DNA of 64,000 bases. Origin: Clostridiaceae bacterium (GTDB lineage Bacteria; Bacillota; Clostridia; Lachnospirales; Lachnospiraceae). A program made the translations under genes and the position numbers. This document shows positions 3,551-53,153 of the stretch, piece by piece (position 1 is the first letter of the stretch; every line of letters starts with the position of its first letter). The stretch covers positions 1,043 to 65,042 of the forward strand of contig CAJTGE010000003.1 in assembly GCA_910575795.1 (NCBI GenBank). The letters are read 5' to 3'. The notes beneath the pieces were generated by a model. The model searched no databases. It saw only the letters and a program-made list of their open reading frames with translations, and was not told the origin of the DNA.

Positions 3551-5139
3551 ATAAATTTTTTGTCCTGTTGAACGTCAGCCTCCGGTCTATGCTTCTTTCC
3601 TCAACCAATTCCAGGGGACGCAGTAAGAGAAAAGCGGCTACCGGGCTGGGCGCAGTCTTTCTCATTGCCTTTCTGGGTCTGTATCTGTCCGGGCTTTACA
3701 GTTATATGCTGATGAAGGCGCTGGCACCATCCAATATGGAAGTGTTGGTATTTGTATTCATGGGCATGGTGGCACTGGTGGGCGGGCTTTTGTTTACCAC
3801 CTTTGCGGTGAAGGGCGTGGTATTTGGCGGAAAGGACAAAGACCTGCTGCTGAGTATGCCGGTGCCCACAACCATGCTGATGGCCAGCCGGGTAACTGCC
3901 ATTTATCTGGAAAACCTGCTGTTCGCCGTTTTCGTACTGCTTCCCGCTGGGGTAATCTGTACGTTTCTGACACAAAACGGTGTGGGTCTTAGTCTGCTGT
4001 TCTGGATGCGGCTGGGGATCGCGGTGCTGGCCCTTCCGCTGCTGGATACGGCGCTGTCCGTATTGTTGGGGGCGCTGGTGGCCTTTCTGTCTGTCCGGGT
4101 GTCCCGCAGAGCGTTGGGGCAGAATATTGTGATGGGAATATTCATGGCAGCAGTGTTCTATTTCTCGTTTCACCTAAACGGTATGATTAACAGCCTTGCT
4201 GAGAATGCCGCCGGAGTGAAAAACTCCCTTACCTGGGCGGCACCCATGCTGTGGATGGGGGAAGGCATTATGGGAGACTGGAAAATGCTGCTGGCCTTTG
4301 TCCTGTGCTGCGTGTTCCCGTTTGCCCTGGTGGTAATCGGCCTTGGCCGGGGATACCGTCAGGCCGTGACTGCTTTTGCCGTGCGATCCGTACAGAGCAA
4401 TTACAAACTCTCGGAACAGACTGCCTCCGGACAGAAGAAGGCTTTGCTGAAAAAGGAAATGCAGCGCTTTTTTGGTACGCCCATGTACTTCTGGAATGCC
4501 GGTATCGGTCTGATTATGCTGCTGGCCGCAGGGGGAGCCTCCCTGGTTATGAGAGAGAAACTGTTGGCTTATGTGGAAATGGCAGGGTATCCTTTCTCGC
4601 TGCTACCTATGGCGGCAGCCGTGATTGGTTTCTGCCTCTGCACCTGCCCTATCACAGCGCCTTCCATCAGCCTGGAGGGAAAATACCTGTGGATTTTGCG
4701 GGAATCCCCCATAGAGGAAAGCTCCCTACTCTGGGTTAAAGTTGGCTTTCAGCTTCTGCTGACCCTGCCCTGTACGGTAATTGCCGGGCTGTGTATTTCG
4801 ATTGCTTTTGGATTTTCTTTGTGGCAGGGGGTGGTGCTGCTCATTGCCACACTGCTTTTCGCCATAGGGCATGCCGTCTTTGGAATGCTTATGGGCCTGT
4901 GCTTTCCGAAGCTTGACGCGGTGAATGAAACGGTCGTTATCAAGCAGTCTATGGCCACGATGCTGGCAATGTTCGCTTCCATGGCGGTACTTGGGGTGGC
5001 GGCGGGATTCTATTATCTGGGCAGTAAAACAGCCCCCTGGACTGCGCTGGCGCTGCCCATAGGGGTATTCGCTTTGTTTGCGGCGGTATGTATCGGGATT
5101 CTTACCAGACAGGGGCCATCACTGCTGAGAAAACTATAG
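3547..5139 (+). CDS. ABC-2-type membrane permease
   Basis: Membrane partner of the upstream ATPase, 530 residues. Many hydrophobic segments alternate with short polar loops, the first near residues 32-57 and several clusters to the C terminus. The ATG at 3547 lies inside the ATPase stop (ATGA overlap), and GGAGGGGGAG just upstream is the ribosome binding site; a longer frame from 3373 is only the out-of-frame end of the ATPase gene. The family is called from context and membrane pattern. Confidence 0.88.
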   Translation: MNKFFVLLNVSLRSMLLSSTNSRGRSKRKAATGLGAVFLIAFLGLYLSGLYSYMLMKALAPSNMEVLVFVFMGMVALVGGLLFTTFAVKGVVFGGKDKDLLLSMPVPTTMLMASRVTAIYLENLLFAVFVLLPAGVICTFLTQNGVGLSLLFWMRLGIAVLALPLLDTALSVLLGALVAFLSVRVSRRALGQNIVMGIFMAAVFYFSFHLNGMINSLAENAAGVKNSLTWAAPMLWMGEGIMGDWKMLLAFVLCCVFPFALVVIGLGRGYRQAVTAFAVRSVQSNYKLSEQTASGQKKALLKKEMQRFFGTPMYFWNAGIGLIMLLAAGGASLVMREKLLAYVEMAGYPFSLLPMAAAVIGFCLCTCPITAPSISLEGKYLWILRESPIEESSLLWVKVGFQLLLTLPCTVIAGLCISIAFGFSLWQGVVLLIATLLFAIGHAVFGMLMGLCFPKLDAVNETVVIKQSMATMLAMFASMAVLGVAAGFYYLGSKTAPWTALALPIGVFALFAAVCIGILTRQGPSLLRKL

Positions 5140-49073: not shown

Positions 49074-50189
49074 ATGGGAAATTTTGATGATATGAAATTA
49101 GCCGTTGAGAGTATCAGCGGCGGAAGAAACACGGTTATCCTGGACGATTTGGGAAAGCCCAGTGTCGTGTTTCCGTTCGTAAAGCAGAAATACAGTGACT
49201 TAATCAGCGGCGGAACCCAGGAAACCCTGCCCTGCTTCATTGTGGACGGGCAGGAAAAGGATGTTGTGTATATCAGCAAATTCCAGAATATCGTAAAAAA
49301 CGACAGGGCGTACAGCCTGCCCTTAAAGGACCCTAGAGTGTATATCACTTTTGACGAAGCACTGCAGGTGTGCCGGAACAAGGGGAACGGCTGGCATTTG
49401 CTTACGGGCGGAATGTGGCAGGCGGTGGCGTTATGGTGCAAGAAAAACGGGACTTTGCCGCATGGAAACAATAATTACGGGTGTGCTTCTGAAAACGGGT
49501 TTGAAAAGGGCGTCCCTACATACAAGGAGGAATCCGGGAGGGTGTTGCGGACAGCAACCGGTTCCGGGCCGGCAACGTGGAACCATGATTTCACGGATTC
49601 CGGCATTTCTGACCTGAACGGGAATGTATGGGAATGGACTGCAGATATGCGCCTGAAAAACGGGGAAATCAATATTATTCCTTATGGCAACGCTATGAAG
49701 CTGAACTGCAATATGGGGCCGGAAAGCACGGAATGGAAAGCGATTCTTCCAAACGGAACCCTGGTAAATCCCGGAACTGCCGGAACCCTGAAATATGAAA
49801 ACAGCAGGGCCGGGGACGCAACAAAAACAAGCCATTCCGTAGGCGGAACCCTGACATTGAGTGATGTCCTGCAGCACCCAATGTATACGGGAAGTGACGT
49901 TGAAAATGATTATGGGTATGTTGGCGGCGCAAGCCCGCTTATGCAGGCATTGACCGCGGAAGCCGGGTTGACCGTGCCGCAGATTGTGAAAGCCTATGGT
50001 TTATTCCCTGTGGACGCTGATCTGGGTGGGGATGGCTTATGGGTGCGGAATTACGGAGAGCGGTTGCCTTTGCGCGGCGGCGGCTGCGATACTACCTTGC
50101 AGGCGGGCGTTTTCGCACTGAACCTGCACTACCGCCGTTCGATTAGTTACGGAGATGTTGGCTTCCGCGCCGCTTTTGTTTCTCTGTAA
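49074..50189 (+). CDS. DGR target: variable tail-tip protein with C-type-lectin fold
   Basis: 371 residues. A formylglycine-generating-enzyme/C-lectin-like fold is indicated by WHLLTGGMWQAVALW, LNGNVWEWTADMR and the terminal RLPLRGG..QAGVFALNL..RRS....VGFRAA block, which is the usual layout of DGR targets. The last block is the variable repeat (50064-50174, residues 331-367). Variable positions are C338, D339, H352, Y353, Y359 and D361. Downstream of the baseplate genes, it is probably the receptor-binding protein. ATG after AGGAGGG. Confidence 0.92.
   Translation: MGNFDDMKLAVESISGGRNTVILDDLGKPSVVFPFVKQKYSDLISGGTQETLPCFIVDGQEKDVVYISKFQNIVKNDRAYSLPLKDPRVYITFDEALQVCRNKGNGWHLLTGGMWQAVALWCKKNGTLPHGNNNYGCASENGFEKGVPTYKEESGRVLRTATGSGPATWNHDFTDSGISDLNGNVWEWTADMRLKNGEINIIPYGNAMKLNCNMGPESTEWKAILPNGTLVNPGTAGTLKYENSRAGDATKTSHSVGGTLTLSDVLQHPMYTGSDVENDYGYVGGASPLMQALTAEAGLTVPQIVKAYGLFPVDADLGGDGLWVRNYGERLPLRGGGCDTTLQAGVFALNLHYRRSISYGDVGFRAAFVSL
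50064..50174 (+). repeat. DGR variable repeat (VR)
   Basis: 111 bp at the 3' end of the target gene. Compared with template 2 (51188-51298) it differs at 50086, 50088, 50127, 50130, 50148 and 50154. Each is an A in the template and G, G, C, T, T, G here. The 3' part GTTGGCTTCCGCGCCGCT is identical in VR and all templates and is the likely initiation site (IMH). Confidence 0.95.
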
Positions 50190-50210: not shown

Positions 50211-50228
50211 GTGCCGCGATAGCGGCGC
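50211..50228 (+). repeat. Short hairpin downstream of VR
   Basis: GCCGC-GATA-GCGGC (50213-50226), extendable by G-C and G-T pairs to 50211-50228. About 37 bases after the VR. In characterised DGRs a hairpin just beyond VR aids retrohoming. Confidence 0.65.
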
Positions 50229-50358: not shown

Positions 50359-50901
50359 ATGGCAGAGGAAACGAAAGGGGAACAGGAAGAACTAATCATA
50401 CAGCAGAAAGTGTATGATATGATAATGTACGCATATCCGGCGGTTGAACAGTTTCCAAAAAGCCAGAAATTTAGTCTTGCGCAGGATATGAAAAAGTGTC
50501 TGGATAATATAATGCGGTATGTCATAGCGGCGAACAAGAAATATACCAAAAAGACAACACTGCAGGAACTGGATATAGAAGTGGCGGCATTGAAAATTTA
50601 TATCCGCATGGCGCGTGATTTGGGCTATCTTCCGCCGAAAAAATATGAAGTGTGGTCGAAAATGGCGGTGGAAGTTGGAAGAATGGTTGGCGGCTGGATA
50701 AAGGCAGACCGGGCAAAGATGAATATACCAGAAAAAGAAAAGGAAACGGAGGGAGAAGAAAAGCAGAATGAAATAATGTACCGGTGCAGTGAGTGCGGAG
50801 AAGAAATAATAGGAAAAATCAAACAATATTCCGAAAAGCATTTCGGGGCCGCATACTGTTATAAATGCCAGAAAAAGCATAAGGCAGAATACCGGGGGTA
50901 G
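50359..50901 (+). CDS. avd: DGR accessory variability determinant with zinc ribbon
   Basis: 180 residues. The first 125 or so are four predicted helices (YDMIMYAYPAVEQFPKSQKFSLAQDMKKCLDNIMRYV..., EVAALKIYIRMARDLGYL...YEVWSKMAVEVGRMVGGW), the Avd/S23-like bundle that binds the RT and template RNA. An extra C-terminal part (about residues 140-176) carries a C-x2-C...C-x2-C zinc ribbon: YRCSECGEE and YCYKCQKKH. The classical Avd is about 130 residues and lacks this. Template repeat 1 starts eight bases after the stop. Confidence 0.9.
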   Translation: MAEETKGEQEELIIQQKVYDMIMYAYPAVEQFPKSQKFSLAQDMKKCLDNIMRYVIAANKKYTKKTTLQELDIEVAALKIYIRMARDLGYLPPKKYEVWSKMAVEVGRMVGGWIKADRAKMNIPEKEKETEGEEKQNEIMYRCSECGEEIIGKIKQYSEKHFGAAYCYKCQKKHKAEYRG

Positions 50902-50908
50902 GCCACAG

Positions 50909-51022
50909 TTGCCTTTGCGCGGCGGCTCCTATTGGAATAATGGATTGCAGGCGGGCGTTTTCGCGCTGAACCTGAACAACCGCCGTTCCAACATTAGTGA
51001 AAGTGTTGGCTTCCGCGCCGCT
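50909..51022 (+). repeat. Template repeat TR1 (114 bp)
   Basis: Homologous to the VR but one codon longer. In VR frame it would read LPLRGGSYWNNGLQ then AGVFALNLNNRRSNISESVGFRAA split over the two loops. It differs from the VR at many non-A positions, so it did not write the present VR. First of four tandem units (start-to-start 279, 278, 280 bp). Confidence 0.93.
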
Positions 51023-51187
51023 CTACCTCAAAGTCAGATACCCGCGCCTTACGGGGCGCAGGCCAGTACAGAGGGATAAAGGGGCCTGCTTCCGTGCCGT
51101 ATGGCAGAAAATACAATGATTGCAGAAACCGCCAGTAGCCCCCAGGGGCGAAAGCCGTTATATGCAATATTTGGGAGTGAACCACAG
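51023..51187 (+). ncRNA. Spacer RNA segment of unit 1 (sp1)
   Basis: 165 bases after TR1. Hairpin GCGCC-TTACGG-GGCGC at 51044-51059 with outer C-C/G-G pairs and a bulged A. A second long-range stem is ATTGCA/TGCAAT near 51118-51170, with an inner GCCC/GGGC hairpin. The end of this spacer resembles sp4 more than sp2 or sp3. Confidence 0.7.
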
Positions 51188-51298
51188 TTGCCTTTGCGCG
51201 GCGGCGGCTACAATACTACCTTGCAGGCGGGCGTTTTCGCACTGAACCTGAACAACCGCCGTTCGATTAGTAACGGAAATGTTGGCTTCCGCGCCGCT
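51188..51298 (+). repeat. Template repeat TR2, donor of the present VR
   Basis: 111 bp. All six differences from the VR are adenines here. It also shares the silent GCA (A at 51241) with the VR where TR1, TR3 and TR4 have GCG. In VR frame: LPLRGGGYNTTLQ then AGVFALNLNNRRSISNGNVG. This is the active or last-used template. Confidence 0.95.
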
Positions 51299-51465
51299 CT
51301 ACCCTCAAAGTCAGATACTTATGCCTTACGGGGCATAAGCCAGTACCGGGGGATAAAGGGGTTTGCTTCCGTGCCGCAGGGCAGAAAATACAATCCGTGC
51401 ATAAGCCGCCAGTAGCCCGGAGGGTGAAAGCCGCTTACTGTATAAAATTTGGGAATGGGCCATAG
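51299..51465 (+). ncRNA. Spacer RNA segment of unit 2 (sp2)
   Basis: 167 bases. Hairpin TTATGCC-TTACGG-GGCATAA (51319-51338). Compared with sp1, two pairs changed on both sides. A long-range stem TGCATAAGC with GCTTA-C-TGTA encloses a GCCC/GGGT hairpin. Closely related to sp3. Confidence 0.7.
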
Positions 51466-51576
51466 TTGCCTTTGCGCGGCGGCAACTGGAACAACGGCAC
51501 GCAGGCGGGCGTTTTCGCGCTGAACCTGAACAACCGCCGTTCGCTATCCAATGTAAGTGTTGGCTTCCGCGCCGCT
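51466..51576 (+). repeat. Template repeat TR3
   Basis: 111 bp. In VR frame: LPLRGGNWNNGTQ then AGVFALNLNNRRSLSNVSVG. A different loop design from TR2 at non-A positions, with AAC/AAT codons at the first loop and the shared AAC AAC pair. Confidence 0.93.
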
Positions 51577-51745
51577 CTACCCTTACAGTCAGATACCTAT
51601 GCCTTACGGGGCATATGCCAGTACCAGGGGGATAAAGGGGCCCGTTTCCGTGCCGCAGGGCAGAAAATACAATCCGTGCATAAGCCGCCAGTAGCCCGGA
51701 GGGTGAAAGCCGCTTACTGTATAAAAGTTTGGGAGCAGGCCATAG
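51577..51745 (+). ncRNA. Spacer RNA segment of unit 3 (sp3)
   Basis: 169 bases. Hairpin TATGCC-TTACGG-GGCATA (51598-51615). Distal part nearly identical to sp2 (AATCCGTGCATAAGCC...). Confidence 0.7.
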
Positions 51746-51856
51746 TTGCCTTTGCGCGGCGGCAATTTCGGTAATGTCGGGCAGGCGGGCGTTTTCGCGC
51801 TGAACCTGAACAACCGCCGTTCCAACAGCTATCACAATGTTGGCTTCCGCGCCGCT
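51746..51856 (+). repeat. Template repeat TR4
   Basis: 111 bp. In VR frame: LPLRGGNFGNVGQ then AGVFALNLNNRRSNSYHNVG. Distinct from the other three; last unit before the RT gene. Confidence 0.93.
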
Positions 51857-52019
51857 CTACCTCACAGTCAGATACCTATGCCTTATGGGGCATATGCCAG
51901 TACAGAGGGATAAAGGGGCCGGCTTCCATGCCGCAGGGCAGAAAATACAATGGTTGCAGAAACCGCCAGTAGCCCCCAGGGGTGAAAGCCGTTATATGCA
52001 ATATTTAACAGGTGGAAGC
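51857..52019 (+). ncRNA. Spacer RNA segment of unit 4 (sp4), RT leader
   Basis: 163 bases to the RT start. Hairpin TATGCC-TTATGG-GGCATA (51877-51894), with the loop C changed to T. Distal stem sequence like sp1. It ends in AACAGGTGGAAGC, the RT ribosome site. Confidence 0.7.
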
Positions 52020-53153
52020 ATGAAAAGCATTAAACATATTTTTGAACAGGTGACGGATTACGAAAACCTTTATAAAGCCTACATGAACGCCAGGATTTGC
52101 AAAAGGTACAGGCGGGAAGTGTTGCGCTTTTCGGCGCACTTGGAAGATAACCTTACGCAGATACAGCAGGAACTTGTAAGCGGCACTTATCAATTTGGGA
52201 AGTACCGTGAATTTTATATCTATGAACCAAAACAGCGGCTTATCATGGCGCAGTCGTTCCGTGACAGGGTGGTGCAGTGGGCGATTTATCAGCTATTGCA
52301 CCCGATATTCCAAAAGGGCTATATTTCAGATTCCTATGCCTGCATAGAGGGCAGGGGGACCCACAGCGCGGTTGAAAGGCTGCATTACTGGCTGAAACAG
52401 ACAGACAGGAAGCCGGAAAAGTTCTATTACCTGAAACTGGATATCAGCAAATATTTTTACAGAATAGACCATGCCGTGCTTATGGGGATTCTGGAAAGGC
52501 GGATTAAGGACGCCAGAATGATAGAACTGTTAAGCAGGATTGTAAACAGCAATACAAATTTCGGTTTGCCGCCTGGGAAGAGTCCAGGAGAAGTGCAGAA
52601 AGCGGAGCGGGTAAACGACAAGGGTATGCCGGTCGGGAATCTGTCAAGCCAGATGTTCGCAAATTTGTACATGAACGAGTTGGACCAGTATTGCAAGCGG
52701 GAATTGCGGATACATTACTATATCCGGTATATGGATGATGTGATTATCCTGCATGAAGATAAAAAGCAGTTGCACGAATGGAAAGACCTGATAAACACAT
52801 TCCTGCAGGAACGGCTGAAACTGGACCTGAATAAGAAAACTTGTATCAGGCCGGTAACGCTGGGGATTGAATTTTGCGGGTACAGGGTATGGGCAACCCA
52901 TACAAAGTTACGCAAAAGCACCGCCTTGAAGATGAAACGGAAGCTGAAACAGGTTCAGGAAAAATACGCGGCGGGTGAAATGACTTATGAAAGGGCCATG
53001 CAGACAGTAAATTCCTATATGGGGATACTGAAACACTGTGACAGCTACAGTTTGCGGCGGGCGATATTCGGGGAATACTTAAAGCCCCCGTATTATGACG
53101 GCTGGTTCTACTTACAACGGAATAGCATAGACGCAGAGGGCGACGGTAAATGA
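52020..53153 (+). CDS. drt: DGR reverse transcriptase
   Basis: 377 residues. Palm motifs: RLIMAQSFRDRVVQWAIYQL (motif 1-2 region), YLKLDISKYFYRID (motif 3), VGNLSSQMFANLYMNELD (motif 4; SQ in place of the usual SP is a DGR mark), YIRYMDDVIIL (catalytic YMDD, near residue 238) and a thumb region. It copies template RNA into A-mutagenised cDNA. ATG 52020 follows AGGTGG; an in-frame start at 51837 would run through TR4 and is rejected. Confidence 0.95.
   Translation: MKSIKHIFEQVTDYENLYKAYMNARICKRYRREVLRFSAHLEDNLTQIQQELVSGTYQFGKYREFYIYEPKQRLIMAQSFRDRVVQWAIYQLLHPIFQKGYISDSYACIEGRGTHSAVERLHYWLKQTDRKPEKFYYLKLDISKYFYRIDHAVLMGILERRIKDARMIELLSRIVNSNTNFGLPPGKSPGEVQKAERVNDKGMPVGNLSSQMFANLYMNELDQYCKRELRIHYYIRYMDDVIILHEDKKQLHEWKDLINTFLQERLKLDLNKKTCIRPVTLGIEFCGYRVWATHTKLRKSTALKMKRKLKQVQEKYAAGEMTYERAMQTVNSYMGILKHCDSYSLRRAIFGEYLKPPYYDGWFYLQRNSIDAEGDGK

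What the first reader, a model, noticed from the sequence alone, without database searches (positions are those of the whole stretch)
50909..52019. Four tandem DGR template repeats instead of one
Seen: four VR-homologous segments (50909-51022, 51188-51298, 51466-51576, 51746-51856) with starts 279, 278 and 280 bp apart between avd and RT. In VR frame each encodes the same framework (LPLRGG..., QAGVFALNLNNRRS..., VGFRAA) but a different first loop (SYWNNGL, GYNTTL, NWNNGT, NFGNVG) and last loop (NISES, ISNGN, LSNVS, NSYHN). Differences between templates include many non-adenine changes, so they are separate designs, not mutated copies. TR1 is one codon longer and would change loop length. Inference: the system can change scaffold as well as adenine-targeted residues by choosing a template. 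Known DGRs, as far as I recall, usually have one template and one or more VRs.
Basis: partly seen in the sequence, partly recalled or inferred. Interest (0 to 1): 0.96.

Follow-up and report, generated by a model that had tools for sequence, protein, structure and literature searches.

The report
Four-template array feeding one hypervariable protein
This prophage carries four different templates in a row, each followed by its own copy of a structured RNA, for one hypervariable phage protein, and in related phages the variable part matches different templates or a splice of two, so these phages likely combine template choice with targeted mutation.

Summary
Between avd and the reverse transcriptase of a prophage diversity-generating retroelement (DGR) lie four template repeats (TR), 278-280 bp apart. 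Each is followed by its own match to the Rfam RNA RT-14 and preceded by the same short motif. The window's VR differs from TR2 at 6 of 20 adenines and at no other base of 111 nt. TR1, TR3 and TR4 do not fit as sole source.

Relatives show that other array members are used. A protein whose body is 307 of 327 residues identical carries a TR4-type VR. A protein with the L024 target body (315 of 315) has a TR3 VR, while L024 itself is TR3|TR4. A protein with the L090 body (314 of 315) has a TR4|TR2 VR, while L090 is TR2. In L024 the best single template leaves 10 non-adenine mismatches; two segments leave none.

Multi-TR arrays occur in 8 of 80 related RT clusters. VRs of two of nine arrays remain unexplained.

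Best reading: any template, whole or one loop at a time, can overwrite VR. Template choice is well supported by sequence; partial retrohoming as the cause of mosaics is inferred. Multi-TR DGRs are in print; I found no report of tandem arrays with mosaic VRs. Wu et al. 2018 was not held.

The parts
49074..50189 (+). target gene (variable protein, 371 aa); VR at its 3' end
   Evidence: PF03781, phrog_2889; phmmer E 8.1e-60 to PDB 5vf4, the DGR variable protein TaqVP
50064..50174 (+). variable repeat VR; differs from TR2 only at adenines (6 of 20)
50211..50228 (+). GC-rich hairpin just downstream of VR, like the hairpin/cruciform that BPP-1 needs for target recognition
   Evidence: for the stem-loop; BPP-1 role from passages of PMC3240598; role here inferred
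50359..50901 (+). avd gene (bAvd)
   Evidence: PF22296, phrog_3206
50894..50908 (+). motif before TR1, GGGGGTAGGCCACAG, overlapping the avd stop codon
50909..51022 (+). TR1 (38 codons, one longer); loops SYWNNGL / NISES
51021..51167 (+). RT-14 RNA copy 1
   Evidence: RF02921, 77.2 bits
51173..51187 (+). motif before TR2, GGGAGTGAACCACAG
51188..51298 (+). TR2, source of the present VR; loops GYNTTL / ISNGN
51297..51443 (+). RT-14 RNA copy 2
   Evidence: RF02921, 68.2 bits
51451..51465 (+). motif before TR3, GGGAATGGGCCATAG
51466..51576 (+). TR3; loops NWNNGT / LSNVS
51575..51722 (+). RT-14 RNA copy 3
   Evidence: RF02921, 61.9 bits
51731..51745 (+). motif before TR4, GGGAGCAGGCCATAG
51746..51856 (+). 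TR4, type that matches the VR of homologue P0001; loops NFGNVG / NSYHN
51855..52001 (+). RT-14 RNA copy 4
   Evidence: RF02921, 66.9 bits
52020..53153 (+). reverse transcriptase (377 aa)
   Evidence: PF00078, phrog_1423 E 3e-144

Best explanation
It is a diversity-generating retroelement with four tandem templates for one variable region, and it likely works by letting mutagenic retrohoming draw on any of the templates, whole or one loop at a time, so that template choice adds to adenine mutagenesis. Shown: four units, each made of motif, TR and RT-14 RNA; the present VR is an adenine-only variant of TR2; in relatives, VRs match other array members or a 5' loop from one template and a 3' loop from another. 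Inferred: each unit gives a template RNA that the RT can copy from its own RT-14 element. In 29 of 31 TRs examined the two loops sit between three A-free runs of at least 12 nt, and in all 31 of at least 10 nt. These runs escape the mutagenesis and can serve as homology anchors. If the cDNA joins at the 5' run, both loops are replaced. If it joins at the central run, only the 3' loop is replaced and a mosaic VR results. N templates would then allow up to N x N loop pairs before any adenine is mutated.
For: Four RT-14 matches above cut-off, one per TR. In 12 units of this phage and its kin, 15 of 30 consensus pairs show compensatory change in at least one sequence. VR = TR2 at all 91 non-adenine positions. 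DNA-level source of VR in nine arrays that hold both VR and TRs. Single source in five: window TR2 of 4, L018 TR2 of 4 (1 non-A mismatch left), L090 TR2 of 4, L109 TR2 of 2, L221 TR3 of 4. Mosaic in two: L024 TR3|TR4 goes from 10 non-A mismatches to 0, with 21 of 21 diagnostic sites in order (1 in 352,716 for that ordering, sites taken as independent); L059 TR3|TR2 goes from 11 to 2, and to 0 with TR1 in the middle. Control: TRs scored as if they were VRs keep at least 8 (L024) or 14 (L059) mismatches with two segments. Protein level: P0127 has the L024 body (315/315) and a TR3 VR; P0121 has the L090 body (314/315) and a TR4|TR2 VR; P0225 has the L018 body (173/173 of the part it holds) and a TR1 VR with 1 residue left over; P0001 has a TR4-type VR with 1 left over; P0123 is a mosaic. 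Background: for the L024 array the next of 74 parsed VRs needs at least 4 unexplained residues, for the window array the next of 82 needs 3. Paralogous spacers W2/W3 are 94% alike but their TRs are 82% alike, differing in the loops and at one silent site; orthologous TRs in L018/L019 are 96 and 99% alike. Passages of PMC3240598: at least 8 bp of TR/VR identity suffices to complete homing, at least 19 bp works better.
Against: Two of the nine arrays (L020, L134) have a VR that no present template explains: 10 non-A mismatches each with the best single TR, 9 and 10 with two segments, 7 and 6 with four. P0004 has exactly the L018 body (326/326) but 9 and 11 unexplained residues against the two L018 TRs of its length and 7 with two segments. 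P0002 and P0003, the next relatives of the window's protein, fit none of its TRs well (P0003 carries the VR of L017). The closest RT relative, L017, has a single TR. In L024, L059 and L090 only the last TR carries RT-14, yet VRs there match upstream TRs; this does not fit one complete template RNA per TR. The mosaic step could be DNA recombination. The protein-level assignments use cluster representatives, their arrays are not seen, and A-to-N reachability is permissive: at protein level a TR of L059 leaves only 2 residues of the L024 VR unexplained. No transcription or retrohoming was measured.
Confidence: 0.75

Rival explanations
1. Only one template works at a time; the extra units are by-products of tandem duplication and are on their way out, and VR follows whichever template is left.
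For: The closest RT relative L017 has one TR. L059 keeps what reads by eye as a deleted remnant of a TR that is full-length in L090. In L020 two of three TRs are identical.
Against: All four window units keep RT-14 above cut-off, an open frame and three A-free runs. Orthologous TRs stay 96-99% alike in the five pairs compared between L018 and L019 and between L059 and L090. Phages with the same body carry VRs of different templates.
Confidence: 0.12
2. Template choice is real, but mosaic VRs arise by ordinary DNA recombination: between VRs of co-infecting phages, or between TRs to make a chimeric template that was later lost.
For: The same conserved blocks give homology for any recombination. 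Arrays do turn over (remnant in L059, duplicate in L020). L221's VR equals TR3 with no adenine changed, which points to DNA-level copying.
Against: Both halves of the L024 and L059 mosaics carry adenine changes against templates still present in the same array. P0121 shares 314 of 315 body residues with L090, whose array holds both parents.
Confidence: 0.3
3. Different arrays simply travel between phages with their VRs, so the templates are lineage markers rather than options within one phage.
For: P0065, whose body is 78% like the L134 target and 55% like the L018 target, has a VR that fits L018/L019-type TR1 and TR4.
Against: P0127/L024 and P0121/L090 differ in VR source while each source TR lies in the array next to the identical or near-identical body.
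Confidence: 0.12
4. The array is an assembly artefact.
For: Assemblies can join VR to TR: P0122 ends with residues encoded downstream of a TR and L195 runs from VR into a TR spacer without avd.
Against: The four window units are 80-95% alike in their spacers, so not copies of one read path, and lie in a 231 kb contig. Arrays recur in independent assemblies, including 1XD42-1 and Fervidicella.
Confidence: 0.03

Closest known systems
Prototype DGR of Bordetella phage BPP-1 (one TR, one VR, avd, brt, structured spacer)
   Same: Gene order target/VR - avd - TR - spacer RNA - RT; adenine-only TR/VR differences; hairpin after VR; structured RNA between TR and RT (described in passages of PMC12875486, and PMC3240598)
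   Different: Four TR-plus-RNA units instead of one; in relatives VR matches different units or mosaics
DGRs with more than one TR in the MetaCSST survey (PMC6642488, section 13 read)
   Same: More than one TR in a DGR: of 271 DGRs with multiple VRs, 216 have one TR, hence 55 have more
   Different: There the extra TRs are discussed as sources of several VRs. Tandem TR-plus-RNA units serving a single VR, and mosaic VRs, are not described in the section read
RT-14 RNA (Rfam RF02921)
   Same: Every unit of the window ends in a full-length match
   Different: Of 26 other genomes with a match have one copy, two have two copies on different contigs, and one (G1316) has two copies in one array
Silent-cassette systems such as pilS/pilE or vlsE, and Ig gene conversion in birds (recalled, no call)
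   Same: Works alike in logic: several donor segments overwrite parts of one expressed segment and give mosaics
   Different: Here the donors are templates of an error-prone RT and the copies carry adenine-specific changes; not a member of those systems
TaqVP, the Thermus aquaticus DGR variable protein (PDB 5vf4; PMC6328139 abstract and passages)
   Same: Solved relative of the target protein, FGE-type C-type lectin fold, VR near the C terminus
   Different: The template array of its DGR was not examined here

Membership tests
Diversity-generating retroelement | RT of the DGR kind | tested here: met
   PF00078 84 bits; phrog_1423; 53% identical to the RT beside an annotated DGR Avd in Dulem virus 37
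Diversity-generating retroelement | TR/VR pair that differs at TR adenines | tested here: met
   TR2/VR: 6 of 20 adenines changed, 0 of 91 other bases
Diversity-generating retroelement | accessory protein Avd | tested here: met
   PF22296 113 bits, phrog_3206
Diversity-generating retroelement | structured RNA between TR and RT | tested here: met
   RF02921, four copies; compensatory changes
Diversity-generating retroelement | target with C-type lectin fold carrying VR | tested here: met
   by sequence only: 5vf4 TaqVP E 8.1e-60; no model was folded
Diversity-generating retroelement | active mutagenic retrohoming | not testable with these tools
   needs reads or an experiment
Multi-template array (proposed variant) | two or more tandem TRs between avd and RT | tested here: met
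   window plus L018, L020, L024, L059, L090, L109, L134 (8 of 80 RT clusters, minus the L124 false hit); L221 in addition
Multi-template array (proposed variant) | VRs that trace to different array members | tested here: met
   L020, L134 and P0004 not explained
Multi-template array (proposed variant) | several templates used within one clone | not testable with these tools
   needs VR reads of a clonal lysogen
Silent-cassette gene conversion (pilE/vlsE type; features recalled) | donor copied by DNA recombination without an RT or adenine-specific change | tested here: not met
   RT present; window VR differs from TR2 at adenines alone; of the nine arrays only L221 has an unmutated copy

The most novel reading that the evidence does not exclude
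The array is a written memory. Mutated VRs that proved useful are copied back into the template array, kept there as A-poor templates that mutate less, and later redeployed whole or loop by loop, so that the phage both explores (A-rich templates) and recalls (archived templates). Basis: in L221 TR3 equals the present VR over 112 nt with all 11 adenines unchanged, and TR2-TR4 are A-poor like a VR (9-11 A against 18 in TR1). L090 TR1 (11 A against 22-24) looks the same.
Probability: 0.2. Interest if true: 0.95.

Novelty: new variant of a known kind. Interest (0 to 1): 0.82.

Why it matters
A standard DGR can only explore residues encoded by the adenines of one template. With several templates of different loops, and with loop-wise replacement, a phage would gain combinatorial diversity plus targeted mutation, a logic known from antibody and antigen variation, in a small retroelement. 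It also raises a direct question about DGR mechanism: how upstream TRs without their own RT-14 RNA are used in the compact arrays. And it offers natural material, pairs of phages with identical bodies and different VR origins, to test how cDNA is joined to VR.

Tried and rejected
Other VRs of the window's TRs in the host genome: none found with TR2 as query.

Patterns with wrong spacing wasted two viral scans; corrected patterns were checked on fetched loci (37-41) and rerun, returning only contigs already known. RT scans with L090 and L134 (97, 101) gave one new contig, L195.

L124 was counted as multi-TR by the script; alignment showed a palindromic repeat without TR features, so it is not counted as multi-TR: 8 of 80, not 9. 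It is still labelled multi-TR in the tree.

One search took 138 loci: 105 analysed, 33 skipped, 20 because less than 1.2 kb lay upstream of the RT (L019, with 3 RT-14 copies, is among them) and 13 because no repeat pair was found. One search kept 72 rows; L059 fell out there as a near-copy of L090. could parse a VR in 82 of 296 protein records.

Baseline for single-TR loci: 80 of 94 have at most 2 non-A mismatches, 2 have 3-4 and 12 have 5 or more. Eight of those 12 are one group of relatives aligned over a longer stretch.

The L059 mosaic is not perfectly ordered for two templates: one site out of order and one that neither explains; both fit TR1, so the middle TR1 segment rests on two sites.

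L195 and P0122 join VR to TR-downstream sequence and were not used as evidence.

Promoters in the array: none found by the simple scan (0; shuffles 2.7), and no terminator-like site between units, so one array transcript is possible but untested.

Structure prediction was not run; the solved relative 5vf4 was enough.

Literature: searches (listings). Passages seen in PMC6642488 (also section 13), PMC4891356, PMC8144416, PMC12629997, PMC11792537, PMC3240598, PMC12875486, PMC8008677, PMC3521204 (also section 13) and PMC6328139 (also abstract); no passage matched the terms in PMC10907252 and PMC7517822. No paper was read whole. Wu et al. 2018 (NAR, recalled as a large DGR survey) is not held, so prior notice of tandem TRs there cannot be excluded.

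Full report
CHECK. The window holds a prophage region: tail, baseplate, holin and endolysin genes by PHROGs, at G000:C3:1043-65042 of a 6.2 Mb genome. A target gene (49074-50189), a bAvd gene (50359-50901), four TR units and an RT (52020-53153) follow one another on the plus strand. The four TRs start 279, 278 and 280 bp apart. VR differs from TR2 at 6 of 20 adenines and at none of 91 other bases; the other TRs leave 13-15 non-adenine mismatches. A whole-genome search with TR2 found VR and the four TRs; the other matches were of 14-17 bases.

ANATOMY OF A UNIT. Each TR is followed by a full match to Rfam RT-14 (77.2, 68.2, 61.9 and 66.9 bits; cut-off 48.1). In 12 units of the window, L018, L019 and L017, 15 of 30 predicted pairs have at least one sequence with both sides changed and the pair kept. 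Each TR is preceded by a GGG......CCAYAG motif; in unit 1 it overlaps the avd stop codon; VR lacks it. The introduction of PMC12875486 (passages) says for BPP-1 that the spacer folds and recruits the RT-Avd complex and that a motif at the 3' end of avd ends reverse transcription; by analogy the repeated motif may be that end signal (inference). The window's TRs have three A-free runs (5', central, 3'; 15-22 nt); 29 of 31 TRs from nine arrays have three runs of at least 12 nt, the two others (L059 TR2, L090 TR3) a central run of 10. The TRs of the window differ in the loops and at one silent site only. A GC-rich hairpin follows VR (50211-50228), as BPP-1 needs (PMC3240598 passages). No promoter-like site was found and no terminator-like site lies between units.

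HOW COMMON. The 105 form 80 clusters at 97% RT DNA identity. Eight have two to four TRs: window, L018/L094 (1XD42-1), L020/L095 (Fervidicella), L024, L059, L090, L109 and L134. The script counted a ninth, L124, which is a false hit. In an RT tree of 72 rows, seven multi-TR rows lie in one 14-row clade (98/93) beside seven single-TR rows; the label needs 4 changes against a shuffled mean of 7.7, a count that still includes L124. The nearest RT, L017, has one TR. RF02921 was found in 5 of 195, 12 of 391 and 12 of 398 genomes (the own genome is in each, so 26 others; filters there lose weak matches). Besides the own genome only G1316 has two copies in one array. L221, cut from G1316, holds four TRs.

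TWO ARCHITECTURES. In the window, L018 and L020 every TR has its own RT-14 above cut-off. L019 (3 copies) looks the same but its contig starts inside the array. In L024, L059 and L090 the TRs are about 145 bp apart, each preceded by a short motif (GGGATT-like in most), and only the last is followed by RT-14. L221 is mixed: its first and last TR have RT-14. In L109 both copies score 41.8-43.4 bits, below cut-off; in L134 two of three TRs have a match, at 45.7 and 48.3 bits.

WHICH TEMPLATE MADE THE VR. I scored VR against its own array with adenine changes free (L221). One source in five of nine arrays: window TR2 of 4, L018 TR2 of 4 (1 non-A mismatch), L090 TR2 of 4, L109 TR2 of 2, L221 TR3 of 4. 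Two mosaics. L024: 10 non-A mismatches with the best single TR, none with TR3 up to the central block and TR4 after it; 11 sites favour TR3, then 10 favour TR4, in perfect order. L059: 11 with one TR, 2 with TR3|TR2, 0 with TR1 in the middle. Two arrays, L020 and L134, have VRs that no combination explains (10 mismatches with one TR; 7 and 6 left even with four segments). As a control, TRs treated as if they were VRs keep at least 8 mismatches (L024) or 14 (L059) with two segments.

SAME BODY, OTHER TEMPLATE. Protein searches (the best 120 of each are listed) brought target proteins that differ mainly in VR. P0127 has the L024 body (315/315) and a VR fully explained by L024 TR3. P0121 has the L090 body (314/315) and a VR fully explained by L090 TR4 then TR2. 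P0123 (296/315) is a mosaic of the same kind. P0225, a shorter record, shares 173 of 173 body residues with L018 and fits L018 TR1, one codon longer, with 1 left over. P0065 has a different body but fits L018 TR1 (5') and L019 TR4 (3'). Against this, P0004 has the L018 body (326/326) and leaves 7 or more residues unexplained by the L018 TRs of its length, and P0002 and P0003 fit none of the window's TRs (5 or more left). In the parsed set (82 of 296 records; 74 of the right length for the compact arrays) other VRs need at least 3-4 unexplained residues for the window, L024, L059 and L090 arrays, apart from P0122 (2), which is a VR-to-TR join; for L018, P0009 needs 2. These are cluster representatives; their own arrays are not visible.

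EVOLUTION OF TEMPLATES. Spacers of the four window units are 80-95% alike, against 63-72% to L018/L019 spacers, so the arrays were amplified or homogenised separately. Units W2 and W3 have 94% identical spacers but 82% identical TRs, all differences in the loops apart from the silent site; orthologous TRs of L018 and L019 are 99 and 96% alike beside spacers of 93 and 97%. Templates are thus stable between phages yet kept different within an array.

MECHANISM. Shown: several intact units; VRs that fit different units or two-part splices. Inferred: retrohoming from any unit, with the cDNA joining VR either at the 5' block (both loops replaced) or at the central block (3' loop only). PMC3240598 (passages) reports that 8 bp of identity suffices and 19 bp works better in BPP-1; the central run of 10-35 nt is in that range. 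DNA recombination is a live rival for the mosaics. How upstream TRs without RT-14 are used in compact arrays is unexplained; long cDNAs, jumping, or action of the RNA at a distance are open.

NOVELTY. It meets the tested features of a DGR and is a variant of it. Multi-TR DGRs are in print: PMC6642488 (section 13) reports 271 DGRs with multiple VRs of which 216 have one TR. My searches showed no description of tandem TR-RNA arrays serving one VR or of mosaic VRs in what I saw; Wu et al. 2018 was not held. The boldest reading, an archive of past VRs, rests on L221 (VR equal to TR3, all 11 adenines unchanged) and on A-poor templates in L221 and L090; an assembly cause is not excluded.

Noticed in passing
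L221 1981-2092 and 3226-3337 (G1316:C59): VR and TR3 are identical over 112 nt with all 11 adenines unchanged, and TR2-TR4 are A-poor (9-11 A against 18 in TR1), as if mutated VRs had been copied into the template array.
   Followed up: partly
L090 4293-4399; L059 about 4330-4400: The first template of L090 is A-poor and VR-like (11 A against 22-24 in the others); L059 keeps what looks like a deleted remnant of it.
   Followed up: partly
L024, L059, L090 arrays: Only the last TR is followed by RT-14 RNA, yet VRs match upstream TRs; the repeated unit is a short motif plus TR.
   Followed up: partly
G000:C3:82232-83314, minus strand (L161; outside the window): A second prophage DGR in the same genome, with one TR/VR pair and an RT interrupted by one TAG.
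   Followed up: partly
L195 2642-3871: The VR of the target gene runs straight into a TR spacer with RT-14 and no avd between; within the repeat VR is an adenine-only variant of the next TR. A natural deletion or an assembly join; P0122 shows a similar join.
   Followed up: partly
L191 3207-3422 (Dulem virus 37, PP511443.1): An annotated 'enediyne biosynthetic pathway protein' lies over the downstream copy of the TR/VR repeat between Avd and RT; it is probably not a gene.
   Followed up: no
L109 10634-10714 and 10955-11035, minus strand: Two Twister-sister ribozyme matches (75-77.5 bits) about 320 bp apart downstream of the DGR.
   Followed up: no
P0004: Target body identical to L018 over 326 residues but with a VR that L018's TRs of that length do not explain, so that phage line probably has a further template.
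   Followed up: partly
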